DNA of 40,143 nucleotides from Limnohabitans sp. Rim8 (GTDB lineage: Bacteria; Pseudomonadota; Gammaproteobacteria; Burkholderiales; Burkholderiaceae_C): NCBI GenBank assembly GCA_945897795.1, contig CAMDFT010000021.1:1-40143 (forward strand). Reading direction: 5' to 3'. The notes under the pieces were generated by a model. It worked only from the letters and a program-made list of their open reading frames with translations. It did not search any database and had not been told where the DNA came from. Both the position numbers and the translations under genes were made by a program. Each line of letters starts with the position of its first letter. The stretch's first letter is position 1. Below are positions 25,338-38,876 of this stretch, piece after piece.

Positions 25338-26397
25338 AATGCGGCCCCAGGCCTCGCGCCTGTGGACTTATGCCTCGCCCGTGCTGGCGCTGGTGCTGAC
25401 GGTGCTGCTGGGTGTGGCGCTGTTCATGGCGCTGGGCAAAGATCCGGTGCGCGGGCTGCAAATGTTCTTTTGGGAGCCCATCAAAAGTGGCTATGCCTTG
25501 GGCGAGTTGATGGTCAAGGCCACGCCTTTGCTGATCATCGCGCTGGGTTTGTCGGTGTGCTTCCGGTCCAACGTGTGGAACATCGGGGCCGAGGGGCAGT
25601 TTGTCATTGGCGCGGTGTGCGCCGGGGGCATGGCGCTGCTGGCGGACAAAGACACGGGCCGCTGGATCGTGTTGGCGGTGCTGCTGGCGGGGGTGTTGGG
25701 CGGCATGTTGTGGGCGGGCCTCACGGCGCTGCTGCTCGACCGATTCAATGCCAATGAAATTCTGGTCAGCCTGATGCTGGTGTATGTGGCCGACATGGTG
25801 CTGAGCTATTTGGTCTATGGCCCCTGGAAAGACCCGGCAGGTTTCAACTTTCCGCAATCCAAAACCTTCGAGGCGGTGACGCAGATCCCGCGTTTGATGG
25901 ACGGCTCGCGCGTGAGCGTGGGCTTGTTGATGGCGCTGGTGGGCGCGGGCTTGTTGTGGGTGTTTTTGTTCCGCACCCGTGCCGGGTTTGCCCAGCAAGT
26001 GGGCGGTCTGGCCCCGGCGGCGGCGCGCTATGCCGGCTTTTCTTCGCGCAAGGCGCTGTGGGTGGCTTTGCTCACGTCGGGTGGGGCTGCAGGCTTGGCG
26101 GGCGCTTTGGAAGTGGCAGGGCCCATTGGCCAGCTCACGCCCTATGTGCCTGCGGGCTACGGGTTTGCCGCGATCATCGTTGCGTTTGTGGGTCGCTTGC
26201 ACCCGGCGGGCATGGTGTTATCGGCGGTGCTGATGAGCATGTTCTACATCGGAGGGGAGCTTGCGCAATCGCGCTTGGGCCTGCCCAAGTCGATCACCGG
26301 CGTGTTCCAGGGTTTGCTGTTGTTTTGTTTGTTGGCGTGTGACACGCTGGTGGCCTACCGCTTGCGCTGGGTGGCGTCCAAGAAAGGAGGCGTGTGA
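25324..26397 (+). CDS. purine/nucleoside ABC transporter permease 1
   Basis: This 357-residue inner-membrane permease has many hydrophobic helices and belongs to the BMP-type (NupB/YufP-like) ABC permease family. Typical is the loop KATPLLIIALGLSVCFRSNV, then WNIGAEGQFVIGAV near residue 90. The start at 25324 has AGGAGG upstream and overlaps the ATPase gene; an earlier in-frame start at 25267 is unlikely. The stop TGA shares its last base with the ATG of the second permease. Confidence 0.9.
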   Translation: MLKLEMRPQASRLWTYASPVLALVLTVLLGVALFMALGKDPVRGLQMFFWEPIKSGYALGELMVKATPLLIIALGLSVCFRSNVWNIGAEGQFVIGAVCAGGMALLADKDTGRWIVLAVLLAGVLGGMLWAGLTALLLDRFNANEILVSLMLVYVADMVLSYLVYGPWKDPAGFNFPQSKTFEAVTQIPRLMDGSRVSVGLLMALVGAGLLWVFLFRTRAGFAQQVGGLAPAAARYAGFSSRKALWVALLTSGGAAGLAGALEVAGPIGQLTPYVPAGYGFAAIIVAFVGRLHPAGMVLSAVLMSMFYIGGELAQSRLGLPKSITGVFQGLLLFCLLACDTLVAYRLRWVASKKGGV

Positions 26398-27317
26398 TGG
26401 AGTCGTATGCATTGCTGATCGCAGCCACCCTGAATGCGGGCACGGTGCTGGCCATTGCCGCTTTGGGTTTGCTGATCAATGAAAAAGCTGGGGTCGTGAA
26501 CCTGGGTGCCGAGGGCCTGATGCTGTGCGCAGCCATCGCGGGTTTTGCGGCCGTGGTGCACACCGGCAACGACTGGCTGGGCTTTGCGGCGGGCATGGGC
26601 GCGGGCGCGGTGCTGGCGGCCATTTTTGGGGTGCTGGTGATTTGGCTGAACACCAACCAGTACGCCACGGGCCTGGCGCTGAGTTTGTTTGGTGTGGGTT
26701 TTTCGGCCTTTGTGGGCATTGGTTATGTGAAGGAAAAGCTGCCCGATCGGTCCCATTTTGCGGTGCCTTATCTGGCCGACATCCCGCTGGTGGGGCCTGC
26801 TTTGTTCAAGCAGCACCCGCTCGTTTATGGGGCGATGGCGCTGGTTTTGGCCCTGATTTGGTTCCTTTACAAAAGCCGCACCGGTTTGGTGCTGCGCGCG
26901 GTGGGTGAATCGCCCGCTTCGGCGCACGCCTTGGGCTACCCGGTGCGCCGCATTCGTCTGGCGGCGGTGGTGGCTGGGGGCGCTTTGTGCGGTCTGGCCG
27001 GGGCCTACATCTCGGTGATCTACACCCCGCTGTGGGTCGAGGGCATGGTGGCGGGCAAGGGCTGGATCGCCCTGGCCTTGACCACCTTTGCCACATGGCG
27101 TCCGGCACGCGTATTGCTTGGGGCTTACCTGTTTGGTGGCGTCACGATGCTGCAGTTCCATTTGCAGGGCGTGGGCGTGCAAGTGCCCAGCCAGTTGCTC
27201 ACGGCGCTGCCCTACATTGCCACCATCGTGGTGCTGGCCCTGATCTCGCGCAACCCCACCTGGATTCGCGTGAACATGCCAGCCTCGCTGGGCAAGCCCT
27301 TTTATCCCGGTTCATAA
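26397..27317 (+). CDS. purine/nucleoside ABC transporter permease 2
   Basis: This 306-residue permease is the usual second, shorter partner (NupC/YufQ-like), with ATLNAGTVLAIAALGLLINEKAG then VVNLGAEGLML at the start and TFATWRPARVLLGAYLFGGVT toward the end. The ATG at 26397 lies six bases after AGGAGG and overlaps the previous stop as TGATG. An in-frame GTG one codon upstream is less likely. It forms the membrane channel with permease 1. Confidence 0.9.
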   Translation: MESYALLIAATLNAGTVLAIAALGLLINEKAGVVNLGAEGLMLCAAIAGFAAVVHTGNDWLGFAAGMGAGAVLAAIFGVLVIWLNTNQYATGLALSLFGVGFSAFVGIGYVKEKLPDRSHFAVPYLADIPLVGPALFKQHPLVYGAMALVLALIWFLYKSRTGLVLRAVGESPASAHALGYPVRRIRLAAVVAGGALCGLAGAYISVIYTPLWVEGMVAGKGWIALALTTFATWRPARVLLGAYLFGGVTMLQFHLQGVGVQVPSQLLTALPYIATIVVLALISRNPTWIRVNMPASLGKPFYPGS

Positions 27318-27362
27318 TTGCTTTCTTTCAACCCCCCGTAACCCTGTTCTAAAGGACATGAC

Positions 27363-28496
27363 ATGACAGACCTCTCCAAGCGCTCCATCGTCAAGATGGT
27401 GGCCCTGACCGCTGTGGCCGCCGCCGCACTGGTCGGCTGTGGCAAAAAAGAAGAAGCCCCAAAGGCTGCGGCCCCCGCTGTGGCCAAGCCTGAGCCTTTG
27501 AAGATTGCGTTTGCGTACGTCGGCCCTGTGGGCGACGGCGGTTGGACCTTTGCGCACGACAACGGCCGCAAAGAAATCGAAAAAGCCTTCGGCGACAAAG
27601 TCGTCACCACCTTCGTTGAAAAAGTGCCAGAAAGCGCTGACGCTGAGCGCGTGATCCGCGACATGGCTGCCCAAGGCAACAAGCTGATTTTTGGCACCAC
27701 CTTCGGCTACATGGAGCCCATGCTCAAAGTCGCTGCAGACAACAAGGGCGTCAAGTTTGAGCACGCCACCGGCTACAAAACCGCCGAGAACATGCGCACT
27801 TACGACAGCCGCACCTACGAAGGCGCGTACATGGCGGGTGTGATCGCGGGCAAGATGACCAAGACCAACGTCTTGGGCGTGGTGGCTTCCATCCCAATCC
27901 CCGAGGTGATTCGCAACATCAACAGCTACACCATGGGCGCGCAGTCGGTCAACCCCAAGATCAAGACCAAAGTGGTCTGGGTCAATGAGTGGTTCAACCC
28001 ACCGAAAGAGTCCGAAGCCGCCACCTCGCTGATCAACGGCGGTGCAGACGTGCTGATGCAAAACACCGATTCGTCAGCTGTGTTGCAGACTGCCGAGAAA
28101 ATGGGCAAGCGCGCCTTTGGCTGGGATTCCGACATGACCGCCTACGGCCCCAAGGCCCACCTGGGCTCGGCCGTGATCAACTGGGGCCCTTACTACGTCA
28201 AGGCCGTGGGTGAAGCCCTGGAAGGCAAGTGGAGCACCGGTTCGAGCTGGTGGGGCGTGAAAGAAGGCGCGATCGAGATGGTCAACGTGGCCGCTGACGT
28301 GCCAGAAGACACCAAAAAGCGCATCGCCGAGATCAATGCGGGCCTGAAAGACGGCAGCTTCTCCATCTGGAAGGGCCCGATCGTGGACCAGTCCGGTAAG
28401 GAAATGCTGGCCAAAGACACTGTCGCCGACGACAAGTTCCTGGGCGGCGTGATGTTCTACGTCAAGGGCGTGGAAGGCAAGATCCCAGGCAAGTGA
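27363..28496 (+). CDS. BMP-family purine/nucleoside-binding lipoprotein
   Basis: This 377-residue protein is the periplasmic receptor of the importer. A lipoprotein signal ends in LVGC, so Cys26 would be lipidated. A low-complexity alanine/lysine linker follows, then the BMP (PnrA-like) fold with KIAFAYVGPVGDGGWTFAHDNG, GTTFGYMEPML, the segment YEGAYMAGVIAGKMTKTN and GADVLMQNTDSSAV. It resembles BMP proteins known to bind purine nucleosides or bases, but the exact ligand is not visible. It is the last gene of the LysR-ABC operon and is followed by a strong terminator. Confidence 0.9.
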   Translation: MTDLSKRSIVKMVALTAVAAAALVGCGKKEEAPKAAAPAVAKPEPLKIAFAYVGPVGDGGWTFAHDNGRKEIEKAFGDKVVTTFVEKVPESADAERVIRDMAAQGNKLIFGTTFGYMEPMLKVAADNKGVKFEHATGYKTAENMRTYDSRTYEGAYMAGVIAGKMTKTNVLGVVASIPIPEVIRNINSYTMGAQSVNPKIKTKVVWVNEWFNPPKESEAATSLINGGADVLMQNTDSSAVLQTAEKMGKRAFGWDSDMTAYGPKAHLGSAVINWGPYYVKAVGEALEGKWSTGSSWWGVKEGAIEMVNVAADVPEDTKKRIAEINAGLKDGSFSIWKGPIVDQSGKEMLAKDTVADDKFLGGVMFYVKGVEGKIPGK

Positions 28497-28529: not shown

Positions 28530-28559
28530 AAAAAAGGCTGTCCATGGACAGCCTTTTTT
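28530..28559. terminator. strong bidirectional terminator
   Basis: A perfect 30-base palindrome has the arm AAAAAAGGCTGTCCA, so it gives a GC-rich stem flanked by A6 and T6. It stops the purine-transporter operon from the left and the carotenoid-oxygenase operon from the right. Confidence 0.88.
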
Positions 28560-28577: not shown

Positions 28578-30035
28578 TTACGGCCTCAATTCACGCGCAT
28601 CGGCCCAGCAGGCATGGGTGCCGCTGCTGATGCGGTGGGGCAAGATGATGCGCGCCACCGGGCCGGCATCGATGTGCTGCGCATCCAGTACCACGCATTC
28701 CGACTGATCGGTCTTCATGTCGGTCACAAAGCTCACCACATAGCCGTCGTCTTCGCTTTGGGCATCGTGACAGGGGGCCATGGGGGACTCGCTGCCAAAG
28801 CGGCCTTCGCCGAACAGGTAGGTTTGCGATTGCCCAGTGGTGTGGTCGTAGCGCAGGATGCCATCGAACAGGAAGGAGCCCGGGTGCGCGATCATGTTGT
28901 AGGCATAGCGGTAAGGCTGGCCCCAATAAGCGGCATTGATCATGCCGAATTCCAGATGCCTTTCATCCAGTCGCTTCTCTGAGCTTTTTCCCGTGCGCAG
29001 GTTCAATCGCCATTCGTACAAGGTGGGGCCATAACGTTCGGGTCCCAAGGTGTTGCCCGAGTTGTCGTAGCCAGCCTTGGGCATGGGGGTTTTCTGGTGG
29101 TAGCCATGCAGCACGATCTCGTCGCCTTCTTCCCAGGCGTTGAGCCAGTGCAGCACATAGGTGGGGCTGGCTTCAAACCAGCGGATACCGGTCTGGGGCG
29201 CGCCTCGCCTGGGCACCACGGCAAAACGCGAGGGCTGCTGCTCAAAGTAGCGCAGCTTGTGTTTGCCCTGTGGCAGCAAATCTTCGTCCCAGTGCAGGGG
29301 GAAGTCGTTGAGGATGGCAAAGTGTTCGGTGAACACCATGTCATGGGGCAAACGCGGGCCAGGCAAGGGCACCGGCACATAGTGCACCAACTGGTTGTGG
29401 CGGTCGACCTCGCCGTAATGCATGTAGGGCGCATGTTTGCTGTAGTTGAAAAACAGCAAATCGCCAGTCCTAGGGCAAACTTTGGGGTGGGCGCTGATGC
29501 CGCCATCGGGCAGGACTTGGTGGCCCCAGTCGTCCACGCCTTTGAACTCGAGTGTGCGGGCATCCAGCCGATAGGGCTCGCCGCATTGGTAAAACGTGGT
29601 CAGTGCCATGCCTGCATGCACGATCACATCGGTGGCCGAGCTGTCGCGCAGGCCGCCGCGAGCGCCCCAACCTGGGCGCAAAGCCAGCGAGGGTTTGTCG
29701 ATCAGCCCGGCATACAGAGCCTGGCCTGCGGCTTGTTCTTCCATGAAGGCTTGGGTGCGGATGAAGCGGTTGCGGTATTCGCAGCGGCCATGCTCAAAGC
29801 GCATCATGTGCAGCATGCCGTCGCCATCGAACAGGTGGTAGGTGCCCAAGGGCTGGTGCACCGGGTTTTGCGTGTTGCGCAGATACACCCCGTTCAGGCG
29901 CTTGGGGATCTCACCAATGACCTGCAGGTCGGTGGCATTCCATTCCTGGTAGTTGGGCGTGAAAGGCCCGGTCATCAGCGGATGCTTGTCAGGAATCAGG
30001 GTGGGACGGATTTCCGAAACGAGTTCAGCTTGCAT
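28578..30035 (-). CDS. carotenoid-oxygenase-family cleavage dioxygenase 1
   Basis: This about 485-residue enzyme belongs to the carotenoid/apocarotenoid/stilbene cleavage oxygenases, which split a C=C bond with O2 at a four-histidine Fe(II). The histidines are visible: SAHPKV (H183), LPHDMVFTEHF (H231), VLHWLNAWEEGDE (H296) and GTHACW (H474). The N-terminus LNGVYLRNTQNP and LFDGDGMLH are typical. The lysine that binds the phenol in lignostilbene dioxygenases is not seen; the region reads FYQCGEP, closer to apocarotenoid enzymes. No Shine-Dalgarno supports either this ATG or the one 11 codons upstream (30068). It is the last gene of a seven-gene operon. The substrate is unknown. Confidence 0.85.
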   Translation of the reverse strand: MQAELVSEIRPTLIPDKHPLMTGPFTPNYQEWNATDLQVIGEIPKRLNGVYLRNTQNPVHQPLGTYHLFDGDGMLHMMRFEHGRCEYRNRFIRTQAFMEEQAAGQALYAGLIDKPSLALRPGWGARGGLRDSSATDVIVHAGMALTTFYQCGEPYRLDARTLEFKGVDDWGHQVLPDGGISAHPKVCPRTGDLLFFNYSKHAPYMHYGEVDRHNQLVHYVPVPLPGPRLPHDMVFTEHFAILNDFPLHWDEDLLPQGKHKLRYFEQQPSRFAVVPRRGAPQTGIRWFEASPTYVLHWLNAWEEGDEIVLHGYHQKTPMPKAGYDNSGNTLGPERYGPTLYEWRLNLRTGKSSEKRLDERHLEFGMINAAYWGQPYRYAYNMIAHPGSFLFDGILRYDHTTGQSQTYLFGEGRFGSESPMAPCHDAQSEDDGYVVSFVTDMKTDQSECVVLDAQHIDAGPVARIILPHRISSGTHACWADARELRP

Positions 30036-30110
30036 GAGTGGCTTTATAGGAAGTGGCCAAGGGCTCATGGGTGTTAAAAATTCATGAGGCCAATCGCATC
30101 GGTACGGGGT

Positions 30111-31121
30111 TCAGTCCAGCACAATGCCGCCGATCGCCTGGATGACTTTGCCCCAACGTTCTGCATCCTCCTTGAGCCAATTCCGCAGTTTGTCGGGTGT
30201 GCTTCCTGTCAAGGTGTAGCCCAGTGAAGTGAACCGATCAGACACGGAGGGATCATTCAGTGCCGTGATGGTGTCTGCGGACACCTTGTTCAAAATGGCT
30301 TGAGGTGTGCCTACCGGCGCGAGCAGACCAAAACGCGCATAAGTGCCCTCCATGGCGGGATATGCCTGCTCGGTGAAGGTGGCGACATCCGGCAGCAAGG
30401 GTGACCGAGCGGGCCCGTTGATGGCAATCGCTCTGAGCTTGCCTGCTTTGATCTGGGATTGCGCTGTTGCCAAGTCGGCCAGAGTCAGGGTGATTTGACC
30501 GGCAATCAAGTCGCTCACTGCGGGCCCTGTGCCTTTGTAGGGGACATGGATCATGTCTATGCCGGCACTTTGATTAAAGGCTTCAATGGCCAGATGCGCA
30601 CCCGATCCCTGTCCAAAAGAGCCATAGCTCAATTTTTTGGGTTGTGCTTTGGCCAATGCCACCAGCTCTTTGAGGTTGGTGACTGCTGTGGTGCTGTTGA
30701 CCAAAAAGGCGGCAGGTGCAATGCCTACGTGCGAGACTGGCGCCAGTTGTTTGAGTGGGTCATGAGGCAGTTTTCTGAAAATGACGGGGTTGATGACAAG
30801 GGGTGAGGCGGAGCTCATCAACAGTGTGAAACCATCTGGTGCGGCTTTGACCACGGCGTCCACACCAATGATGCCCGAAGCCCCTGCTTTATTTTCGACC
30901 ACAACCGATTGCTTCCAAATTTCGGACAATCGCTGCGCAAGGGTTCGGGCGATCAGGTCAGAACCAGAGCCCGCTGCTGTGGGCACAATGATTCGCACGG
31001 GCTTATCGGGCCATGGCGATTGGGCACAGACCAAGCCTGTCAGACAGGCCAGAAAAATACCCGCCCAAAAACGAATGGCATATCGGCAAGTTTTGAGTCG
31101 CGGTATTTCAAAGTGGTTCAT
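30111..31121 (-). CDS. Bug-family (TTT) periplasmic substrate-binding protein
   Basis: This receptor of about 336 residues has a signal peptide ending GLVCAQS and the Bug core WPDKPVRIIVPTAAGSGSD, VVENKAGASGIIGVDAV, KAAPDGFTLLM and IHVPYKGTGPAVSDLIAGQ. The start at 31121 is supported by GGAG six bases upstream and overlaps the flavin-reductase gene by 14 bases. It is one of two TTT receptors in the operon and sits between the flavin reductase and the first oxygenase. TctA/TctB permeases are not in the window. A carboxylated substrate or product of the oxygenase pathway is the likely ligand. Confidence 0.9.
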   Translation of the reverse strand: MNHFEIPRLKTCRYAIRFWAGIFLACLTGLVCAQSPWPDKPVRIIVPTAAGSGSDLIARTLAQRLSEIWKQSVVVENKAGASGIIGVDAVVKAAPDGFTLLMSSASPLVINPVIFRKLPHDPLKQLAPVSHVGIAPAAFLVNSTTAVTNLKELVALAKAQPKKLSYGSFGQGSGAHLAIEAFNQSAGIDMIHVPYKGTGPAVSDLIAGQITLTLADLATAQSQIKAGKLRAIAINGPARSPLLPDVATFTEQAYPAMEGTYARFGLLAPVGTPQAILNKVSADTITALNDPSVSDRFTSLGYTLTGSTPDKLRNWLKEDAERWGKVIQAIGGIVLD

Positions 31122-31803
31122 TGTCATCTCCGTTTTGAAGCTGATGGGACAGGGTTTCATGCAAATGTGAAATGCCTGCAGCGTCTCTGCCTGTGAACTC
31201 TGTCAATTCGTAGCTGTGACTGACATCGGTGTAATCCCTGTAGCCCAATCGTGCCAAGGGCCTGAGGCGGCTGATGTCGATGCGCCCATCTTTGGTCAAG
31301 GCGTTATCTTCTATGTGTATGCCCACGACTTCGGCGACCAAGATCCATGCAGACGAATCCAGACTGCGGCCAGGAACATGCAGTTTTTGCGTCAGTCGGC
31401 ATTCAAAGTGGACGGGGGAGCCTTTGACCCTGCGCGCTTGAACATGCCGTGATGGCAACCATGGAATGTTCAGTGCCTCAAACTCATCGACCCCAGGTGC
31501 CATGTCTTTGGAAGAACCCAACACCCAGTCCTTGAGGTCATAGGTGGCCATGTTCCAGACAAACTCGCCTGTCTCCAGAATATTGGCCGTGGTGTCCTTG
31601 AGCTGCCCGGACTCTCTTGCATTGGCCGCCACCATCACAGTGGGGGGATCCCAGGTGATGTTCTGAAACTGGCTGTAAGGTGCCAAATTGTGAACCCCAC
31701 TGGCGCTGACGGTCGAAATCCAGCCGATGGGGCGCGGCACACAGCAGGACTTGAACGGGTTGTAGGGCAGGCCAGAGACCTCGGACTGGGGCGAATAAAA
31801 CAT
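31108..31803 (-). CDS. flavin reductase family (FMN-binding split-barrel) protein
   Basis: This 231-residue protein has the flavin-reductase-like FMN fold, with PYNPFKSCCVPRPIGWISTVS then GVHNLAPYSQFQNITWDPP near the N-terminus. Relatives either supply reduced flavin to two-component monooxygenases (HpaC, NtaB) or act as flavoredoxins. No flavin-dependent oxygenase component is in the operon, so the partner is elsewhere or the protein works with another redox step. It is 11 bases from the upstream receptor gene and overlaps the downstream one. Confidence 0.85.
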   Translation of the reverse strand: MFYSPQSEVSGLPYNPFKSCCVPRPIGWISTVSASGVHNLAPYSQFQNITWDPPTVMVAANARESGQLKDTTANILETGEFVWNMATYDLKDWVLGSSKDMAPGVDEFEALNIPWLPSRHVQARRVKGSPVHFECRLTQKLHVPGRSLDSSAWILVAEVVGIHIEDNALTKDGRIDISRLRPLARLGYRDYTDVSHSYELTEFTGRDAAGISHLHETLSHQLQNGDDNEPL

Positions 31804-31814
31804 GATCGACCGAT

Positions 31815-32792
31815 CTATTCGCTGGCCTTAAAGCCCGAGATCTTCACCGCTTCTTGCCAACGTTTGGCATCGTTGCGGGTGAAGGTCTGGAACTCTGCCG
31901 AGGTAAAGGGCAAAGGCTCGAAATCGATGGCGCGCCATTTTTCGATGATGGTCTGTGACTTGAGGACTTTGGAGAATTCGGCTTGCAGTTTGCTGATGAT
32001 GGCATCGGGTGTTCCCGCAGGCGCAGACAGGCCCGACCAGATGAAGATTTCCAGATCAGGCAGACCTTGTTCGGTGAATGTGGCCACATTGGGCAACAGG
32101 GGTGAGCGCTGCGGGCTGGTCAATGCAAGGACCTTGATCTTGCCCGATTCCACATGAGACTTGACAGCCATCAGTGGCAAAAAGGCGGCCTGCACCTGAC
32201 CCCCCAGCAAGTTCTGCACGGCCGGTGGTGTGCCGTTGAAGGGCACGTGCACCATGTTCATGCCGGTGCGCTGGTTCATGATTACCCCGGCAAAGTGCGA
32301 GGAGTTGCCGGCGGTGAATGAGGCATAAGAGACACCACCACTTTGGGTTTTGGCCCAAGCCACGAATTCCTTGACGTTGTTGGCAGGCACATTGGCCGCA
32401 TTCACGGCCAGTACCAGCGATGCCCCCAAGAAGCCGGTGACCGGTTTGTAGCTTTTTTCCGGGTCGTAAGGCAATTTGGCAAAGGTGTAGGGGTTGATGG
32501 TCATCATGCTGGTGTTGGACAAGAGCAGCGTGTAACCATCGGGTGCGGCCTGCATCACGTTCTGCGCGGCAATGATCCCGGACCCCCCGGGTTTGTTGTC
32601 CACCACAATGGGTTGGCCGGTGTTTTTCTTGAATTCCTCGGCCACCTGCCGCAAAGCGTTGTCCAGGGTGTTGCCCGGTGCAAACGGCACGACCACACGG
32701 ATGGGGCGTTCAGGAAAATTGGGGGCTTGTGCAAGGGCTGTGCCCGCGAACAGGAATGCAGCCAAGGTGAAAAGAGTTGAGCGTTTGTGCAT
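31815..32792 (-). CDS. Bug-family (TTT) periplasmic substrate-binding protein
   Basis: This 325-residue receptor has a clean signal peptide (MHKRSTLFTLAAFLFAGTAL, cut at ALA-QAP) and Bug motifs FPERPIRVVVPFAPGNTLDN, IVVDNKPGGSGIIAAQNVM, AAPDGYTLLLSNT and VHVPFNGTPPAVQNLLGGQ. It differs clearly from the other receptor in the same operon, so the two may bind different ligands, such as the growth substrate and a cleavage product. It lies 27 bases downstream of the hydrolase gene. Confidence 0.9.
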   Translation of the reverse strand: MHKRSTLFTLAAFLFAGTALAQAPNFPERPIRVVVPFAPGNTLDNALRQVAEEFKKNTGQPIVVDNKPGGSGIIAAQNVMQAAPDGYTLLLSNTSMMTINPYTFAKLPYDPEKSYKPVTGFLGASLVLAVNAANVPANNVKEFVAWAKTQSGGVSYASFTAGNSSHFAGVIMNQRTGMNMVHVPFNGTPPAVQNLLGGQVQAAFLPLMAVKSHVESGKIKVLALTSPQRSPLLPNVATFTEQGLPDLEIFIWSGLSAPAGTPDAIISKLQAEFSKVLKSQTIIEKWRAIDFEPLPFTSAEFQTFTRNDAKRWQEAVKISGFKASE

Positions 32793-32819
32793 GTGTTTCT
32801 CTAGGTGGGGTGGATGGGT

Positions 32820-33515
32820 TCAGGACAAAAGGGATGCCAGGACGTGGGCAACAGCGGGCGCTTGCTGTACGGGCAGCATGTGACCGCTTTGGGGAATGAT
32901 GCAAGTTTGGGCATGGGGAATGCATTGCGCCAATTGATGGGTCAACTGCGGCGGTGTCACGCGGTCGTGTTCGCCACACAACAGCGCCACGGGCAAACTG
33001 AGGTGGGACAACGCCTCTCGGTGATCGGCTCGACCCATGATGGCGCGAGTCTGGCGCAGAGCGGTTTCGCAACCCACCGACAACAACATCTGCCGCAAGC
33101 GTTCTTGAACGGCTTCGCTGGCTTCGTGCGTGCCAAACTTCACGATGCCCTCCACCACTTTGGGGAAGTTGGTCTGCATGGCCAACATGGTTTTTTCACG
33201 AACAGCCCGACTTTCCTCGGACTCTGGCAGCGCAGAAGTTGACAGCAAGGCTGCCGCTGAGAGAGGCCTTTGCGGCTGAGCCAGCATCTCAATGGCGACA
33301 TAACCACCCAAAGAAAAACCCGCCACCATCACCGGGGCGTTCACTGGAATATCTTCCAGCAGCCGCCAGGCATCGTGGGCCATCTCGGCAATGCTTTCCT
33401 GGGTATGCACGTTGGCGATGCGGACTGTCCAGCCGCCCGGCAGACAAGGCAGTACATCGTCCCAGACGCTGGCATCGTTGAGCATGCCGGGGATCAGCAG
33501 CAAGACCGGCTTCAT
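32820..33515 (-). CDS. alpha/beta hydrolase
   Basis: This 231-residue enzyme has a full catalytic triad pattern: nucleophile in GFSLGGY near residue 66-72, acid in LLCGEHDRVTPP near 187, and histidine in IIPQSGHMLPVQQ near the C-terminus. It is short for the family and has a small cap. Its ATG overlaps the stop of the acyl-CoA synthetase as ATGA, so they are coupled. It may hydrolyse an ester, lactone, ring-opened intermediate or CoA ester of the pathway. The specific substrate cannot be read from the sequence. Confidence 0.85.
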   Translation of the reverse strand: MKPVLLLIPGMLNDASVWDDVLPCLPGGWTVRIANVHTQESIAEMAHDAWRLLEDIPVNAPVMVAGFSLGGYVAIEMLAQPQRPLSAAALLSTSALPESEESRAVREKTMLAMQTNFPKVVEGIVKFGTHEASEAVQERLRQMLLSVGCETALRQTRAIMGRADHREALSHLSLPVALLCGEHDRVTPPQLTHQLAQCIPHAQTCIIPQSGHMLPVQQAPAVAHVLASLLS

Positions 33516-35260
33516 GAGGTGACCTCGTTGGAGGCTAAGGTTTGTGGCAGGTTGCCAGAGGCCACCAAGGCACGCAATTCCCGTTTCAAGATTTTGCCGA
33601 CCGGGTTGCGGGGCAGTTCGTCAAGCAGGATCATTTTTTCGGGCCATTTGAAGGAGGCCACTTCTTTGACATTTTTCAGGTAATCGACCAAATCCTGCAA
33701 GCAGATGTCTTGATCCGGCTGTGCCACCACCACCGCACAAACCCGCTCGCCCATGACCGGGTCGGGCAAGCCAATGACCGCACTGTCGCGCACTTTGGGG
33801 TGGCTCATGAGAAGGCCTTCGATTTCTTCCGAAGAGATGTTCATGCCGCCCCGGATCACGATGTCTTTTTGTCGCCCGCAAAAGCGGTAGAACTGCAGTT
33901 CATCGCCCGCAATTTCAAACAGATCGCCGGTGCAGTAATAGCCTTGTTCATCAAAGGCCCGAGCGGTGAGTTCGGGGGCTTTGTAATAGCCGCTGAAGAT
34001 GGTGGGGCCTTTGAAGCGCAATTCGCCAACGTACCCTTTGCTCAGGATGTCTTCGCCTGTGTCGATGTCGACCAGCCGTGTCTGGATTTTTTGGGACACA
34101 GACATTTTCCAATTGAAGCCAGGCACGCCCATGCGGGGGAAATACAGGGCGCGTTGACTGCGTTCTGGCATGTCCAGAGGGCATGAACTCAAGGCTGCGC
34201 CTTCATTGGAGCCGAAATAATTGACCACTTCGATGTCGAACTGGTTCTTCATTTCTTCCATCATCCATTCGGACAGCGGGCCACCACCCGAGCCCACGCT
34301 TTTGAGTCGGCTCAAGTCAACGCCTTGCATTTTTTCGGGTTGCTTGAGCAGCATGTTCAGCACGGCAGGCGCTGCCACGCTGTAGTCCATGGGATGGGCG
34401 CGCAGTTGCGCCACAAACACTTCCATGTCAAAGGGGTGATGGTGGTGCAAGGTGCCACCCACGACCAGCCAGGCGGCCAGACTGGAAGACACCCCTGCCA
34501 TGTTGACGAAGGGGAACGGAATCAGCAATTGGGCACCCCGTTGTAATTGCCCAGCCTGGCTGACCGATTGTCCAGCGATCAACCATTCGTTGTGATTCCT
34601 GGGCACACCCTTGGCGCGCGCTTCTGTACCGGAGGTCCAGCAGATGGTGAGCACATCGTGGGCGGTGACGCCCATGTCATGGCTGTGCTGGCGCAATTGC
34701 TGGGCGTTCCAGGTCGGCGCATCGGCCAGCAACTGGGACAGGCTCGTCACGCCATCTGGCAGGTCCTGACCCAGCGACCAGATGTGCTGCAGGCCTTCAA
34801 AGAGTGGGGCGTGCATGGCCCATTGCTGGGCCGCCGGGTAGTTGCCAATGTGCTGGGTGGTGATGGCCAGTTTGGCTTGCGTGATGGCGAAAACATGGGT
34901 GAGTTCATGCGTTCGGTACTGCACAGGCACGGGTGAAACCACGATGCCATTGATGGCGCACGCCAAGTAAATGGCATGCATCTCCACACAGTTGGGCAGT
35001 TGCATGACGATGATGTCGTCCTTGCGCAGCCCTTGCAGGTGCAACAAGGCGCAAAAGCGCCCGACTTGCGTCAGCAACTGCGCCCATGTCCAGCATTGGG
35101 GATCGTCGCCGCTGATGCTGCGACGGTTTGGGGGGTCTACGACCGCCATGTCCTGGGCTTGCTGCTCGGTCGTCTTGATGAACAGCTCGCCCATGGTTTC
35201 TTCGGTCCACCAACCCTGTTCGACATAGGCTTTTATTTTTTCGGGTGACACCAAAATCAT
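33512..35260 (-). CDS. AMP-dependent acyl-CoA synthetase
   Basis: This 582-residue enzyme adenylates a carboxylic acid and transfers it to CoA. The phosphate loop is an unusual TSGTEARAKGVPRNH, where most relatives have TSGTTGxPKG. Others are clear: NYFGSNEGAALSS, YYCTGDLFEI, GRQKDIVIRGGMNISSEEIE and, at the C-terminus, LPRNPVGKILKREL with the catalytic lysine. The start at 35260 gives the family length; the longer in-frame start at 35380 lies in the oxygenase gene. It begins two bases after the oxygenase stop and overlaps the hydrolase start. In context it would activate an acid released by C=C cleavage. Confidence 0.9.
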   Translation of the reverse strand: MILVSPEKIKAYVEQGWWTEETMGELFIKTTEQQAQDMAVVDPPNRRSISGDDPQCWTWAQLLTQVGRFCALLHLQGLRKDDIIVMQLPNCVEMHAIYLACAINGIVVSPVPVQYRTHELTHVFAITQAKLAITTQHIGNYPAAQQWAMHAPLFEGLQHIWSLGQDLPDGVTSLSQLLADAPTWNAQQLRQHSHDMGVTAHDVLTICWTSGTEARAKGVPRNHNEWLIAGQSVSQAGQLQRGAQLLIPFPFVNMAGVSSSLAAWLVVGGTLHHHHPFDMEVFVAQLRAHPMDYSVAAPAVLNMLLKQPEKMQGVDLSRLKSVGSGGGPLSEWMMEEMKNQFDIEVVNYFGSNEGAALSSCPLDMPERSQRALYFPRMGVPGFNWKMSVSQKIQTRLVDIDTGEDILSKGYVGELRFKGPTIFSGYYKAPELTARAFDEQGYYCTGDLFEIAGDELQFYRFCGRQKDIVIRGGMNISSEEIEGLLMSHPKVRDSAVIGLPDPVMGERVCAVVVAQPDQDICLQDLVDYLKNVKEVASFKWPEKMILLDELPRNPVGKILKRELRALVASGNLPQTLASNEVTS

Positions 35261-35262
35261 GT

Positions 35263-36705
35263 TTATTTCCAGCGGTTCAAAGTGTGCTGACTGACAAATG
35301 TGGCGTGAAATCCATGGGGCATGCGCCGAGGCAAGAGGATGCGGGCCACCGGCCCTTCGGCGATGCGTGCGCCTTTGCAATCGAAAACCTGGATTTCAGA
35401 GCGTTGCTCGTCCGGGTTCCAGACTGGGACCACCAAATACCCGTCGTCTTCGGATTGCGCGTTGTCACGCGGCGCAAAGCCGGGTTCGTTGTAGAAGTAC
35501 TTGGGCCCAGCGCTGTAGGCCAAATAGCCCCCCGTGCTCAAGTCGTACTTGACCAGACCCGGAAAGCGCGGCTCCTCTTTGCCGCCAAGGGGGAAGATGA
35601 TGTTGTAGGAGTAGCGGTTCTTGCGCCCTTGGTAGAGGCTGTTGATGACCGGAAACTCGGTGTTGAGCACGTCATCGATCACACGCTCATGGGTTTCCCC
35701 CGTCGCCAGGTTGAAGCGCCATTCGTACAGCATGAAATCGCGCTGGCGCAGATGGATGGTTTTTTCCAGCCGACGTCCATCGGGCTGACCATTCTCATCT
35801 TCATGCAGTCGATAGGGTGTGCCGACCATGACCACTTCATCGCCTTCTTCCCATGCATTGACCACATGCAGCATGTAGGTTGGCTTGGCCAGAAACCACC
35901 GAATTTCATGGGCTTGGCCATACCGCGGCAGCACGCCAAAGCGCGAGGGTTGGGTGGCATCAAAGCGCACTTTGTAACGACCCGCCTGCAGGGCCTCGGG
36001 GTCGGGGCGAAGCGGAAAGTCATGCAAGATGGTGTAGTGCTCGGTGATCGCCATGTCATGCGGCAAGCTCGGACCCGGCAGATCGACATCGATCTTGTGT
36101 TTGAGCTGCCGGTCTGGTCCGACCACGCCATATTGCATGAAGGGCGCTTGGAGGCTGTAGTCAAAAAACAGCAACTCTCCGGTGTGCTCATCGGGCCTGG
36201 AGTGCGCAGAGAGGCGGCTGACCGTCCCATCAAAGTCGGCTGGGCCCAGGGTTTCAAGGGTGTCAGGATCGATCGCATAAGGCATGCCGGAGCGGTACCA
36301 CATGCTGATCAGGCGACCCGCGTGGTATTTCACATCGGTGTTGGCGGTGTTCTTCTGAGGTTCGTCAGGACGGTCTTTGCGCCAGGGTTCTTTCAGGCCC
36401 TTCCACAAAGCATGCCCAGCAGCTTGCTCTTCCTGCAGGGCCGCTGTTTGAACCCAGCGGTTTCGGTAAGTCACCTGGCCATTTTCGAAGCGCACGGCAT
36501 GCAGCATGCCATCGCCGTCATAGGCGTGGTAACGCCAGTCGGGTGTGAAGTAAGCGTTGGGGCCATTGCGCACATACAAGCCATTGAGGTCCGTGGGCAC
36601 CTGCCCAATGACCTGCAGGTTGGTGAACACGTCCTCCTGGTGGATGGGGCCGTTGTTGCCATCGAGTGCCGGAATGTCGTGCACCGGCAAATCATTCAAT
36701 TGCAT
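35263..36705 (-). CDS. carotenoid-oxygenase-family cleavage dioxygenase 2
   Basis: This 480-residue enzyme, a distant paralogue of the one at the other end of the operon, has the four iron histidines in RLSAHSRPD (H168), LPHDMAITEHY (H216), MLHVVNAWEEGDE (H280) and GFHATF (H467). The N-terminus DLNGLYVRNGPNAYF and HAYDGDGMLHAV are typical. As in the paralogue, the lignostilbene-type lysine is not evident (MWYRSGMPYAID). It is the first gene after the divergent promoter region and has AGGAG seven bases before its ATG. It should cleave an isoprenoid, stilbenoid or phenylpropenoid C=C bond; which one is open. Confidence 0.88.
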   Translation of the reverse strand: MQLNDLPVHDIPALDGNNGPIHQEDVFTNLQVIGQVPTDLNGLYVRNGPNAYFTPDWRYHAYDGDGMLHAVRFENGQVTYRNRWVQTAALQEEQAAGHALWKGLKEPWRKDRPDEPQKNTANTDVKYHAGRLISMWYRSGMPYAIDPDTLETLGPADFDGTVSRLSAHSRPDEHTGELLFFDYSLQAPFMQYGVVGPDRQLKHKIDVDLPGPSLPHDMAITEHYTILHDFPLRPDPEALQAGRYKVRFDATQPSRFGVLPRYGQAHEIRWFLAKPTYMLHVVNAWEEGDEVVMVGTPYRLHEDENGQPDGRRLEKTIHLRQRDFMLYEWRFNLATGETHERVIDDVLNTEFPVINSLYQGRKNRYSYNIIFPLGGKEEPRFPGLVKYDLSTGGYLAYSAGPKYFYNEPGFAPRDNAQSEDDGYLVVPVWNPDEQRSEIQVFDCKGARIAEGPVARILLPRRMPHGFHATFVSQHTLNRWK

Positions 36706-36788: not shown

Positions 36789-36810
36789 ATTTCGATATAT
36801 TGAATATTAT
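36782..36810 (+). promoter_or_regulatory. promoter of the IclR gene, with spacer palindrome
   Basis: TTGTCA (36782-36787) is followed after exactly 17 bases by TATTAT (36805-36810). The near-palindrome TTCGATATATTGAA (36791-36804) fills the spacer. Transcription would start about at the ATG at 36817, so the message may be leaderless. Confidence 0.6.
36783..36788 (-). promoter_or_regulatory. -35 box of the carotenoid-oxygenase operon
   Basis: A perfect TTGACA on the minus strand has no good -10 at 16-18 bases spacing. This is the pattern of an activator-dependent promoter. It overlaps the IclR -35 box. Confidence 0.4.
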
Positions 36811-36816
36811 TCCGCT

Positions 36817-37617
36817 ATGTTGAATTCTGATGCCGCCATCCACCGCGTTCCAGCGGGCTTGCAAGAGTACGCTGGGGACAAGCAATTTGCCACCACCTTG
36901 GCCAGGGGCATGGAGTTGCTGCGGTGTTTTTCGCCTGAACAGCCGGTTCTGGGGAATAAGGATTTGGTGCAAAAACTGGGTTTGCCGGCTGCCACGGTGT
37001 CTCGCTTGACCTACACCCTCATGTGCATGGGTTATCTGACCCAGACCGAGCATTACGGCAAATACCAATTGGGATCGGCCGTGATTTCTCTGGGGTTTCC
37101 CTTGTTGTCGCAGTTCACTCTGCGCCGACAAGCCAGGCCCTTGATGCAGGAGTTGGCCGAGGCGACGGGTGGGTCCATTTCCATCGGTATCCGGGACCGT
37201 TTGACCATTGTGTACATCGAGGCAGTACGTTCCTTCAACAAGCGGATTTATCCATTGGAGATTGGCACCAGCCACTCCATGGCGGGCACGGCGATTGGCC
37301 GTGCTTACTTGATGTCTTGCCGCCCGCCTGAGCGCGAAGCCTTGCTCAACCAGATTCAGGTCAAAAGCCCCCTAGACTGGCAGCGCTACGGCGGCAAATT
37401 GATGGAAAATTTGCAGCAGTATCCAAAATATGGCTGTTGCGTTTCCGTGGGGGAAGTTTTCTCCGATGTTCAAGCCGTGGCCGTTCCATTGGGTCGCATC
37501 AACCGCGGGGAACTGGCCGCCATCAACTGCTCTTTTCAAGGGCGTGAACTTGATGAGAACTGGTTACGTCAACACATTGCACCGCAATTACAAGCCGTGG
37601 TGCGGCAATTGACTTGA
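36817..37617 (+). CDS. IclR-family transcriptional regulator
   Basis: This 266-residue regulator has an IclR winged helix (FATTLARGMELLRCFSPEQP, NKDLVQKLGLPAATVSRLTY, MGYLTQTEHYGKYQLG) and the effector domain from about residue 95 (MQELAEATGGSISIGIRDRL, AGTAIGRAYLMS). IclR proteins near aromatic or acid pathways usually respond to the pathway substrate. It is divergent from the seven-gene oxygenase operon, which is the obvious target, and precedes the BenE-type permease by 32 bases. The ATG at 36817 has no Shine-Dalgarno; an in-frame TTG at 36775 lies inside the promoter. Confidence 0.9.
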   Translation: MLNSDAAIHRVPAGLQEYAGDKQFATTLARGMELLRCFSPEQPVLGNKDLVQKLGLPAATVSRLTYTLMCMGYLTQTEHYGKYQLGSAVISLGFPLLSQFTLRRQARPLMQELAEATGGSISIGIRDRLTIVYIEAVRSFNKRIYPLEIGTSHSMAGTAIGRAYLMSCRPPEREALLNQIQVKSPLDWQRYGGKLMENLQQYPKYGCCVSVGEVFSDVQAVAVPLGRINRGELAAINCSFQGRELDENWLRQHIAPQLQAVVRQLT

Positions 37618-37649: not shown

Positions 37650-38876
37650 TTGCGCAATCAACTTGAAACCCCCCTGCTGACACAACGCACTTGGCGGCAA
37701 ATCCTGTCCGACTTTGGCAGCACCTATGCCGCCAATGGACTGATCGGGTTCATTTTTGCGGCCACTGGCCCTGTGGCGGTGATCTTGTCGGTGGGGACTC
37801 GTGGCGGTTTGTCGCCACAAGAGTTGGCGTCCTGGGTGTTCGGGGTGTTTTTTGTGAACGGCCTGGTCAGCATGCTGATGAGTTGGCGCTACACCACGCC
37901 GCTGGCATTTGGCTGGACGATTCCCGGCACCGTGTTGGTCGGCCCGGCCTTGCAACACCTGACTTTCCCCGAGGTGATCGGTGCGTTTTATGTCACGAGT
38001 GCTTTGGTGCTGGTGTTGGGCTTGAGTGGTTGGGTCAAGCGCTTGATGGCGGCTTTGCCCATGCCCATCGTCATGGGCATGGTGGCTGGGGTGTTTTTGC
38101 GCTTTGGCCTGGACATCGTGCGGGCGCTGCAAAGCGATGTGGCCATTGCGGCCCCGATGGTGGCCGTGTTCTTGTTGTTGTCGGCGCGTGCCGATTGGGG
38201 CAAGCGCCTGCCGCCTGTCATTGGCGCATTGTTGGTGGGGGCTTTGGCGGTGTCGGTGTCGGGCAGGCTGGATGCCTCGGCCGTGGGGCAGCTGAGTTTG
38301 GCGCAGCCGGTCATTCAGGCACCGGTTTGGTCGTTTGCCGCCATGTTGGAGTTGGTGGTGCCGCTGGCCATCACGGTGCTGGTGGTGCAAAACGGGCAGG
38401 GCGTGGCGGTGCTCAAAAACGCGGGGCACGAGCCACCCGTGAACGCGATCGCCGTGGCCTGCGGTGTGGGCGCGGCGGTGAGCGCGGTGTTTGGCGCGGT
38501 CAGCACATGCCTGACTGGGCCGACCAATGGCTTGCTCACCTCGTCGGGCGACAAGCATCGCCACTACATAGGCGCGTTGTTGTTTGGTGTGCTGGCTTTG
38601 CTGTTCGGCCTGATGGCGCCCACCTTCACCGGCTTGATGCTGGCTGCACCCAAAGAATTCATCATGGTGCTGGGCGGTCTGGCCATGCTGCGCGTGTTGC
38701 AAGGGGCGTTTGTGGCCTCGTTTGGTGCGGGCAAATTCTCACTGGGCGCTTTGGTCAGTCTGCTGGTCACGGTGGCCGACATCGGCCTGTTCAGCATCGG
38801 CGCGGCCTTCTGGGGTTTGGTGGTCGGGTTTGCGGTGTCGTGGTGGATGGAACGGGGTGATTTTCAGAAAACTTGA
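37650..38876 (+). CDS. BenE-family benzoate/H+ symporter-like permease
   Basis: This 408-residue inner-membrane protein has about 10-12 hydrophobic segments and belongs to the BenE family of benzoate transporters. Typical sequence includes ANGLIGFIFAATGPVAVIL, TTPLAFGWTIPGTVLV, LPMPIVMGMVAGVFLRFG and GPTNGLLTSSG. The start is a TTG at 37650 with AAGGA seven bases upstream; the nearby ATG at 37643 is in another frame. It follows the IclR gene on the same strand and is probably co-transcribed. Import of an aromatic acid fits the neighbouring CoA-synthetase operon but is not proven. Confidence 0.88.
   Translation: MRNQLETPLLTQRTWRQILSDFGSTYAANGLIGFIFAATGPVAVILSVGTRGGLSPQELASWVFGVFFVNGLVSMLMSWRYTTPLAFGWTIPGTVLVGPALQHLTFPEVIGAFYVTSALVLVLGLSGWVKRLMAALPMPIVMGMVAGVFLRFGLDIVRALQSDVAIAAPMVAVFLLLSARADWGKRLPPVIGALLVGALAVSVSGRLDASAVGQLSLAQPVIQAPVWSFAAMLELVVPLAITVLVVQNGQGVAVLKNAGHEPPVNAIAVACGVGAAVSAVFGAVSTCLTGPTNGLLTSSGDKHRHYIGALLFGVLALLFGLMAPTFTGLMLAAPKEFIMVLGGLAMLRVLQGAFVASFGAGKFSLGALVSLLVTVADIGLFSIGAAFWGLVVGFAVSWWMERGDFQKT

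What the first reader, a model, noticed from the sequence alone, without database searches (positions are those of the whole stretch)
28578..36705. Seven-gene operon with two carotenoid-type oxygenases, CoA synthetase, hydrolase, flavin reductase and two TTT receptors
Seven minus-strand genes are packed with ATGA overlaps or gaps of mostly under 30 bases and end at a strong terminator. The set encodes uptake (two Bug receptors), oxidative C=C cleavage (two distinct four-histidine oxygenases), CoA activation, hydrolysis and a flavin reductase, with a divergent IclR gene and BenE-type permease. I know no described pathway with exactly this layout. Likely substrates are an apocarotenoid, stilbenoid or phenylpropenoid acid; this is inference.
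Basis: partly seen in the sequence, partly recalled or inferred. Interest (0 to 1): 0.75.

Follow-up and report, generated by a model that had tools for sequence, protein, structure and literature searches.

The report
Paired alkene-cleaving oxygenase catabolic operon
A freshwater bacterium related to Limnohabitans carries a well-conserved but apparently undescribed set of genes that looks built to cut an unknown compound at its carbon-carbon double bonds and burn the fragments as food, and its two cutting enzymes come as a matched pair that the genome holds twice.

Summary
Seven minus-strand genes (28578-36705) are tightly packed, end at a strong terminator and face a divergent IclR gene. Both oxygenases belong to the carotenoid-cleavage (RPE65) family and keep all four metal-binding histidines. 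The operon is half of something larger. The same genome holds a second oxygenase pair with PaaN-like aldehyde dehydrogenase, nitronate-monooxygenase-like, two thiolase and DUF1295 genes (over two contigs); close relatives show this as one operon. In a tree the A enzymes group together and the B enzymes group together, so the A/B pair exists twice. The oxygenase-CoA ligase link recurs in Burkholderiales, Bacillota, Chloroflexota and Actinomycetota, although not in all relatives. The second Bug receptor, the flavin reductase and the BenE permease are local additions. The lignostilbene-dioxygenase residues Tyr101 and Lys134 are missing in all 105 clade rows aligned, which argues against classical 4-hydroxystilbene cleavage. 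Best reading: a catabolic pathway that cleaves a conjugated alkene and degrades the pieces as CoA thioesters. Apocarotenoid-like polyenes are my first guess at substrate, but this is inference only. Ten paper searches found no description of the cluster. I rate it a new variant of a known kind.

The parts
35263..36705 (-). CCO_A: carotenoid-cleavage-oxygenase family alkene oxygenase (480 aa), first gene of the operon
   Evidence: RPE65 415 bits; four His conserved; AlphaFold2 pLDDT 85.4; nearest solved by E-value Osmanthus CCD1, then LsdA/NOV1
33512..35260 (-). CoAL: adenylate-forming acyl/aryl-CoA ligase (582 aa from ATG 35260)
   Evidence: AMP-binding 185 bits; directly downstream of CCO_A in 34 of 37 testable close loci
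32820..33515 (-). ABH: alpha/beta hydrolase (231 aa), ATGA overlap with CoAL
   Evidence: Abhydrolase_1; best NCBIfam resemblance is to PcaD-type enol-lactonases but below cut-off; 31 of 41 close loci
31815..32792 (-). Bug1: tripartite-tricarboxylate-transporter-type periplasmic binding protein
   Evidence: TctC 231 bits; 32 of 41 close loci
31108..31803 (-). FlvR: flavin-reductase-like FMN split-barrel protein; lineage-specific
   Evidence: Flavin_Reduct 64.6 bits; 2 of 41 close loci; of 13 loci with Bug1 followed by a CCO_B-type gene, 2 have FlvR-Bug2 between them, 7 an NMO-like gene, 3 nothing, 1 other genes
30111..31121 (-). Bug2: second TctC-type receptor (probable start ATG 31121); this operon position seen only in the nearest relatives
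   Evidence: TctC 230 bits on the longer ORF 30111-31160; between Bug1 and CCO_B in L007 and L008 only
28578..30068 (-). CCO_B: second, distinct carotenoid-cleavage-oxygenase family enzyme (496 aa), last gene
   Evidence: RPE65 412 bits; four His; AlphaFold2 pLDDT 86.7; separate B branch in the tree
28530..28559 (-). intrinsic terminator, symmetric, between the operon and the convergent Bmp-family gene 27363-28496
   Evidence: 13-bp stem, z -3.9, 0 of 200 shuffles as stable; not listed by the pattern scan
36790..36826 (-). probable IclR operator: two related CATATCG/CAATATATCGAAA-like elements in the divergent intergenic region
   Evidence: seven of the nine invariant columns before the start codon fall in the two elements in 16 aligned regions; exact YRAYATATCGAAA occurs twice in the genome, here and inside an unrelated ORF; with one mismatch allowed 6 sites against 3 for the reversed control
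36817..37617 (+). IclR-family regulator, divergent (probable ATG 36817)
   Evidence: IclR_C and HTH_IclR; PcaR/PcaU/PobR model 113 bits, below cut-off 285; 33 of 41 close loci
37650..38876 (+). BenE-like permease beside the regulator; mostly not conserved with the operon
   Evidence: BenE 243.5 bits in Pfam, NCBIfam 177.9 below cut-off 203.4; 4 of 41 close loci

Best explanation
The operon is one half of a two-operon catabolic pathway. A substrate with a conjugated C=C bond is taken up, with periplasmic Bug receptors as likely helpers. It is cleaved by two iron-dependent oxygenases of the carotenoid-cleavage family (CCO_A and CCO_B), which evolved as a pair and act in sequence or together. The aldehyde/ketone fragments are oxidised (PaaN-like aldehyde dehydrogenase, second operon), activated by the CoA ligase and degraded as CoA thioesters by FMN enzymes, hydrolase and thiolases. 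The divergent IclR protein probably regulates it through an operator overlapping its own start. Shown here: gene content, order, conservation, metal ligands, pair duplication, missing lignostilbene-dioxygenase residues. Inferred: enzyme reactions, order of steps, substrate. Best substrate guess: an apocarotenoid-like isoprenoid polyene or related conjugated alkene, not a classical 4-hydroxystilbene.
For: Both oxygenases keep the four metal His (111 of 111 aligned rows). CoA ligase is directly downstream in 34 of 37 close and 13 of 32 distant testable loci. Same-genome second half: CCO_B2-CCO_A2 and the 5' part of PaaN on contig C51; lipocalin end, PaaN, NMO, thiolase, DUF1295 and a second thiolase's start on C136. 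In five relatives (L088, L093-L096) CCO_B2, CCO_A2, lipocalin, PaaN, NMO, thiolase, DUF1295, thiolase and HxlR follow one another on one strand in 5 of 5, with the divergent SDR in 4 of 5; in G009 CCO_A-CoAL-ABH-Bug1 lies on the same contig as these genes. The two halves co-occur: PaaN orthologue in 9 of 60 genus genomes, 8 of them with the CCO_A operon. CCO_A groups with CCO_A2 and CCO_B with CCO_B2. NMO-like genes lie near 21 of 41 close and 12 of 38 distant loci, PRK06289-type thiolase near 23 of 41 and 14 of 38. Annotated plasmid clusters hold NMO, CoA ligase, hydrolase, oxygenase and thiolase genes together. Lys134 and Tyr101 are absent in 105 of 105 clade rows. Sequence match is better to plant CCD1 (261/226 bits) than to LsdA (186/169 bits).
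Against: No substrate, expression or growth data. 18 of 38 distant loci have no CoA ligase within 10 kb by my measure: some contigs end too soon and two (L071, L083) have it just beyond in the same gene run, but five gammaproteobacterial ones sit beside unrelated genes and several Amycolatopsis loci lack it; L016 (84% identity) also lacks it with ample flank. Foldseek TM-scores do not separate CCD1 from LsdA or NOV1 (0.82-0.85 for all three). The window is a MAG contig and the second operon is split over two contigs. The 79 loci were fetched with CCO_A as query, so they are biased to its clade and not phylogenetically independent.
Confidence: 0.62

Rival explanations
1. It is a stilbenoid or phenylpropenoid (lignin-type) catabolic operon: the oxygenases cut hydroxylated stilbenes, isoeugenol or vinylphenols to benzaldehydes, which then enter CoA-dependent aromatic degradation.
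For: Lignostilbene dioxygenase models match the window enzymes over nearly full length. A PcaR/PobR-like IclR and a BenE-like permease are adjacent. HsCCO of Herbaspirillum (Burkholderiales, recalled) and RbCCO convert isoeugenol and 4-vinylguaiacol to vanillin (PMC6700365, passages). PaaN-like ALDH lies in the second operon.
Against: Tyr101 and Lys134, which bind the 4-hydroxyl in LSD4 (PMC8191317 passages), are absent in all 105 clade rows. The window enzymes score 234/262 bits against a cut-off of 800 in the LSD model. LsdA falls outside the clade. BenE is in 4 of 41 close loci. Thiolases and DUF1295 are not obviously needed for this route (inference).
Confidence: 0.2
2. The oxygenases serve endogenous carotenoid metabolism, for instance making retinal or another apocarotenoid from the cell's own pigment.
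For: Family membership and best sequence match to a plant carotenoid dioxygenase; squalene/phytoene-synthase-family genes are present in the genome.
Against: Squalene/phytoene-synthase-family genes occur in 58 of 60 genus genomes (that family also covers hopanoid enzymes, recalled) but the oxygenase family was found in only 10. CoA ligase, thiolase, hydrolase, receptors and an IclR regulator point to uptake and degradation.
Confidence: 0.08
3. The operon degrades a non-isoprenoid conjugated alkene such as a polyketide side chain or an unsaturated aromatic ketone.
For: Distant clusters add acyl-CoA dehydrogenase-like plus APH-kinase-like genes (by eye), a muconolactone-isomerase-like gene or a Rieske oxygenase, so substrates may differ among lineages.
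Against: No positive evidence for any one such substrate.
Confidence: 0.25

Closest known systems
Plant carotenoid cleavage dioxygenase 1 (Osmanthus fragrans CCD1, 9luz/9m3e/7vud)
   Same: Best solved match by sequence for both oxygenases (261 and 226 bits) and first by E-value in Foldseek
   Different: 34/30% identity in the Foldseek alignments; CCD1 groups with VP14 outside the bacterial clade; a plant enzyme, not part of a bacterial CoA-linked operon
Lignostilbene dioxygenases (LsdA, NOV1, LSD4)
   Same: Fold, size, four His, bacterial catabolic setting
   Different: Tyr101/Lys134 absent; LsdA outside the clade; below NCBIfam cut-offs; the passages seen of a review of lignin-dimer pathways (PMC12997858) name no such gene set
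HsCCO/RbCCO isoeugenol and 4-vinylguaiacol oxygenases (PMC6700365, passages)
   Same: Same enzyme family; HsCCO is from Herbaspirillum (Burkholderiales, recalled)
   Different: Characterised as single enzymes; selected at 50-70% identity to CsO2; their place relative to this clade was not tested
8'-apo-carotenoid 13,14-cleaving dioxygenase (pNL2, NF052295)
   Same: Family; best NCBIfam model for CCO_B (240 bits)
   Different: Cut-off 675 not reached; falls outside the clade on a long branch
Cupriavidus pENH92 and Sphingopyxis pRW412b plasmid clusters
   Same: Annotated NMO, CoA ligase, hydrolase, oxygenase and thiolase genes in one cluster
   Different: One oxygenase each in the stretch seen (43% and 46% to CCO_A), with porin, or with TonB receptor and Rieske oxygenase; no function given in the annotation

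Membership tests
Carotenoid cleavage oxygenase (RPE65, PF03055) | full-length family match above curated cut-off | tested here: met
   412 and 415 bits, cut-off 27
Carotenoid cleavage oxygenase (RPE65, PF03055) | four metal-binding histidines | tested here: met
   111 of 111 rows, both window proteins
Carotenoid cleavage oxygenase (RPE65, PF03055) | family fold (seven-bladed propeller) | tested here: met
   confident models match solved family members, query TM 0.77-0.85 in the 50 rows listed for each
Lignostilbene dioxygenase | Tyr101 and Lys134 binding the 4-hydroxyl group | tested here: not met
   L101 and Y134 in both window enzymes; 0 of 105 clade rows have Y101 or K134; residue roles from PMC8191317 passages
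Lignostilbene dioxygenase | grouping with LsdA in a tree | tested here: not met
   LsdA and L109 fall outside the 105-row clade, SH-aLRT 100; long branches, quick search
Lignostilbene dioxygenase | NCBIfam equivalog cut-off | tested here: not met
   234 and 262 bits, cut-off 800
Lignostilbene dioxygenase | cleavage of lignostilbene | not testable with these tools
   needs enzyme assay
CCD1 (carotenoid 9,10-dioxygenase) | 9,10 cleavage of carotenoids/apocarotenoids | not testable with these tools
   needs enzyme assay
CCD1 (carotenoid 9,10-dioxygenase) | grouping with CCD1 in a tree | tested here: not met
   CCD1 pairs with VP14 outside the clade
TTT Bug receptors (TctC, PF03401) | family match above cut-off | tested here: met
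   231 and 230 bits, cut-off 27
TTT Bug receptors (TctC, PF03401) | cognate TctA/TctB membrane genes in the operon | tested here: not met
   no such gene among the seven operon genes; rest of the genome not tested
PcaR/PcaU/PobR regulators (TIGR02431) | curated cut-off | tested here: not met
   113 bits, cut-off 285
BenE benzoate symporter (TIGR00843) | curated cut-off | tested here: not met
   177.9 bits, cut-off 203.4; Pfam BenE is met
Flavin reductase partner of a two-component oxygenase | a partner flavin-dependent monooxygenase in the operon | tested here: not met
   none among the seven operon genes

The most novel reading that the evidence does not exclude
A widespread, undescribed bacterial pathway that mineralises apocarotenoids or similar isoprenoid polyenes: duplicated A/B pairs of carotenoid-cleavage oxygenases (working as a heteromer or in sequence) chop the polyene, and a dedicated set of CoA ligase, NMO-type FMN enzyme, PaaN-type aldehyde dehydrogenase and thiolases consumes the pieces. 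Versions of it sit on plasmids and occur from Limnohabitans to Bacillus and Amycolatopsis.
Probability: 0.3. Interest if true: 0.8.

Novelty: new variant of a known kind. Interest (0 to 1): 0.55.

Why it matters
Carotenoid-family oxygenases are common in bacteria, but few have a known physiological role (PMC12997858 says so for the lignin setting; otherwise recalled). Here a defined, conserved gene set with a regulator, a probable operator and named isolates that carry it (Limnohabitans, Polaromonas, Variovorax, Cupriavidus, and a distant version in Neobacillus) makes the role directly testable. If the substrate is an apocarotenoid, it would describe how freshwater and soil bacteria consume pigment breakdown products; if another alkene, it still defines a new cleavage pathway and two enzyme subfamilies with a non-lignostilbene active site.

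Tried and rejected
Canonical lignostilbene dioxygenase: rejected as a membership claim because Tyr101/Lys134 are missing, LsdA lies outside the clade and cut-offs are missed. The alignment is ambiguous by one residue near position 134, so I also checked columns 131-137: Lys occurs there in 1 of 105 clade rows, and Tyr in columns 99-103 in 2 of 105.

Shared operator linking both operons: rejected. The exact IclR-site pattern is found only at 36790 and inside an unrelated ORF on C11, not on C51. With one mismatch allowed there are 6 sites against 3 for the reversed control, so the pattern alone is weak evidence; the case rests on conservation.

Endogenous carotenoid use: weakened. Structural discrimination of substrate by Foldseek: uninformative, TM-scores alike.

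Bmp-family and nucleoside-type ABC genes at 25267-28496: convergent, a Bmp match in only 5 of 41 close loci, left out. PMC4263727 mentions one carotenoid oxygenase on a beta-oxidation-rich mycobacterial island; the passages seen do not describe this cluster ('nitronate' occurs 0 times in its main text).

Papers: ten searches. Passages only were seen of PMC12997858, PMC8191317, PMC6700365 and PMC4263727; other listed papers were seen as search listings only.

Rows dropped: the tree used oxygenase ORFs of 420-560 aa (440-560 for later loci): 15 of 96 first-set ORFs were left out, 0 of 17 later ones. Greedy gene calling missed the main oxygenase in several loci, so the counts come from tblastn on all 79 loci.
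Full report
WHAT IS THERE. The window is a whole contig (C21) of a 164-contig MAG-like assembly, 87% complete. Its nearest relatives at CCO_A are an uncultured Burkholderiales MAG (98%), Limnohabitans sp. 2KL-51 (96%) and a Comamonadaceae MAG (96%). Seven minus-strand genes run 36705 to 28578: CCO_A, CoA ligase, alpha/beta hydrolase, Bug1, flavin-reductase-like protein, Bug2, CCO_B. Gaps are 2, -4, 27, 11, about -14 and 42 bases (with the Bug2 start corrected to ATG 31121). A 13-bp stem with an A/T tract at 28559-28530 folds better than all 200 shuffles, although the simple consensus scan did not list it. IclR and a BenE-like gene are divergent.

THE OXYGENASES. Both give over 410 bits to the RPE65 family and keep all four metal histidines, as do 111 of 111 aligned rows. 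AlphaFold2 models are confident (mean pLDDT 85.4 and 86.7). By sequence the best solved match is plant CCD1 (261 and 226 bits), then VP14 (198 and 184) and LsdA (186 and 169). Foldseek ranks CCD1 first by E-value, but query TM-scores do not separate it from LsdA or NOV1 (0.82-0.85). Residues Phe59, Tyr101 and Lys134 bind the hydroxylated ring in LSD4 (PMC8191317, passages). The mapping recovers F59, Y101, N120 and K134 in LsdA. In the clade of 105 rows, position 101 is L, I, V, M or R and position 134 is Y or S. The classical 4-hydroxyl grip is therefore absent.

A PAIR, TWICE. Four family members were found in the genome: two here and two adjacent on contig C51. In an IQ-TREE quick tree of 111 rows, all four fall in one clade (SH-aLRT 100) that excludes LsdA, CCD1, VP14, the pNL2 enzyme, a Sphingobium row and a Nostoc row. 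Within it CCO_A falls with CCO_A2 in a 47-row group (99) and CCO_B with CCO_B2 in a 22-row group (99). So I infer that an A/B duplication came first and both partners then appear in two operons. Deep branches are long and the search was short, so outgroup placement is tentative.

THE SECOND HALF. C51 carries a divergent SDR gene, CCO_B2, CCO_A2 and the 5' part of a PaaN-like aldehyde dehydrogenase, cut by the contig end. Contig C136 (5197 bases) carries the end of a Lipocalin_5 gene, PaaN, the NMO-like gene, a PRK06289-type thiolase, DUF1295 and the start of another thiolase. In five relatives (L088, L093-L096) CCO_B2, CCO_A2, lipocalin, PaaN, NMO, thiolase, DUF1295, thiolase and an HxlR regulator follow one another on one strand in 5 of 5, and the divergent SDR is found in 4 of 5 (families). 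In genome G009 CCO_A-CoAL-ABH-Bug1 and most of the second set lie on one contig, with an ABC transporter and an acyl-CoA synthetase gene between them.

CO-OCCURRENCE. Among 60 genus genomes (own included), the oxygenase family was found in 10, CCO_A (>=81% identity) in 9, and the CoA ligase (E<=1e-80) in the same 9 and in none of the other 51 (Fisher 7e-11). The PaaN orthologue (E<=1e-150) occurs in 9, of which 8 carry the CCO_A operon (Fisher 3e-8); G016 has CCO_A without it and G059 has it without CCO_A. Relatedness is not corrected for. Squalene/phytoene-synthase-family genes are in 58 of 60, so they do not track the oxygenases.

NEIGHBOURHOODS. One genome-contig scan with CCO_A found 354 relatives and kept 79 loci. 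I split these into 41 with >=65% identity and 38 below. CoA ligase directly downstream: 34 of 37 and 13 of 32 testable. CoA ligase within 10 kb: 38 of 41 and 20 of 38. Hydrolase: 31 of 41 and 1 of 38. Bug1: 32 of 41 and 1 of 38. IclR: 33 of 41 and 0 of 38. NMO: 21 of 41 and 12 of 38. PRK06289-type thiolase: 23 of 41 and 14 of 38. HxlR: 6 of 41 and 16 of 38. CCO_B: 17 of 41 and 0 of 38 (CCO_B2-type: 2 and 1). PaaN: 7 of 41 and 4 of 38. Flavin reductase: 2 of 41 and 0 of 38. BenE: 4 of 41 and 1 of 38. Short contigs lower these counts, and L071 and L083 have the CoA ligase just beyond my 10-kb limit in the same gene run. Counterexamples: L016 (84%) lacks the CoA ligase, five gammaproteobacterial loci (L055, L058, L060, L065, L078) sit beside unrelated genes, and several Amycolatopsis loci lack it. 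The distant clusters span Bacillota, Chloroflexota, Actinomycetota and Proteobacteria. Of 13 loci with Bug1 followed by a CCO_B gene, 7 have an NMO-like gene between them, 2 (L007, L008) have the flavin-reductase-like gene and Bug2 as in the window, 3 (L009, L011, L013) have nothing and 1 (L034) has other genes.

PLASMID COPIES. tblastn found matches in 104 plasmid records, 102 of them under 60% identity. pENH92 of Cupriavidus necator NH9 carries Bug and thiolase genes, a helix-turn-helix regulator, then NMO, CoA ligase, hydrolase, oxygenase and porin, beside integrases. pRW412b of Sphingopyxis granuli carries CoA ligase, NMO, SDR, aldehyde dehydrogenase, hydrolase, TonB receptor, Rieske oxygenase, carotenoid oxygenase and thiolase, with IS elements downstream. 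This fits a mobile catabolic module.

REGULATION. Sixteen aligned IclR-CCO_A intergenic regions, chosen by me, share two related elements (consensus CATATCG and CAATATATCGAAA, with substitutions in some). In the genome the exact pattern YRAYATATCGAAA occurs twice, here and inside an unrelated ORF; with one mismatch there are 6 sites against 3 for the reversed control. I take it as a probable local, autoregulatory IclR operator; it was not found on C51.

HOW IT LIKELY WORKS. Inference: uptake; iron-dependent C=C cleavage by the A/B pair; oxidation of aldehydes; CoA activation; CoA-thioester degradation with FMN enzymes and thiolases. That chemistry suits a methyl-branched polyene fragmenting to ketones and acids, hence the apocarotenoid lead. 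Thiolases and DUF1295 (weak match to steroid dehydrogenases) are less expected for simple stilbenes. No substrate is shown. Ten paper searches found no description of the cluster; the library holds open-licence papers only.

VERDICT. A real, conserved, apparently undescribed catabolic operon; the exact seven-gene layout is a local variant of a wider module. New variant of a known kind.

Noticed in passing
G000 contig C51 (L005:1-4334) and C136 (L104): PaaN appears twice: a truncated copy at the C51 edge directly after CCO_A2 with no lipocalin match between, and a full copy on C136 that follows a lipocalin end. This may be strain mixture in the MAG or a true duplication.
   Followed up: partly
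L106:1-10653 (pRW412b): A plasmid cluster adds a single-gene Rieske oxygenase alpha subunit and a TonB receptor to the oxygenase, NMO and CoA ligase set, with IS elements downstream.
   Followed up: no
L062 and L071/L083: Distant clusters add SDR, acyl-CoA-dehydrogenase-like and APH-kinase-like genes (by eye), a trio I recall from 4-hydroxyacyl-CoA degradation (not tested); L062 also has a muconolactone-isomerase-like gene.
   Followed up: no
L055, L058, L060, L065, L078: Gammaproteobacterial clade members lie beside a roughly 1300-aa protein that reads like phosphoribosylformylglycinamidine synthase (by eye), with no cluster genes found nearby; a different role is possible.
   Followed up: no
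window 25267-28496: A Bmp-family binding protein gene, with two genes upstream that read like ABC permeases (by eye), converges on the operon and lies just past the symmetric terminator.
   Followed up: partly
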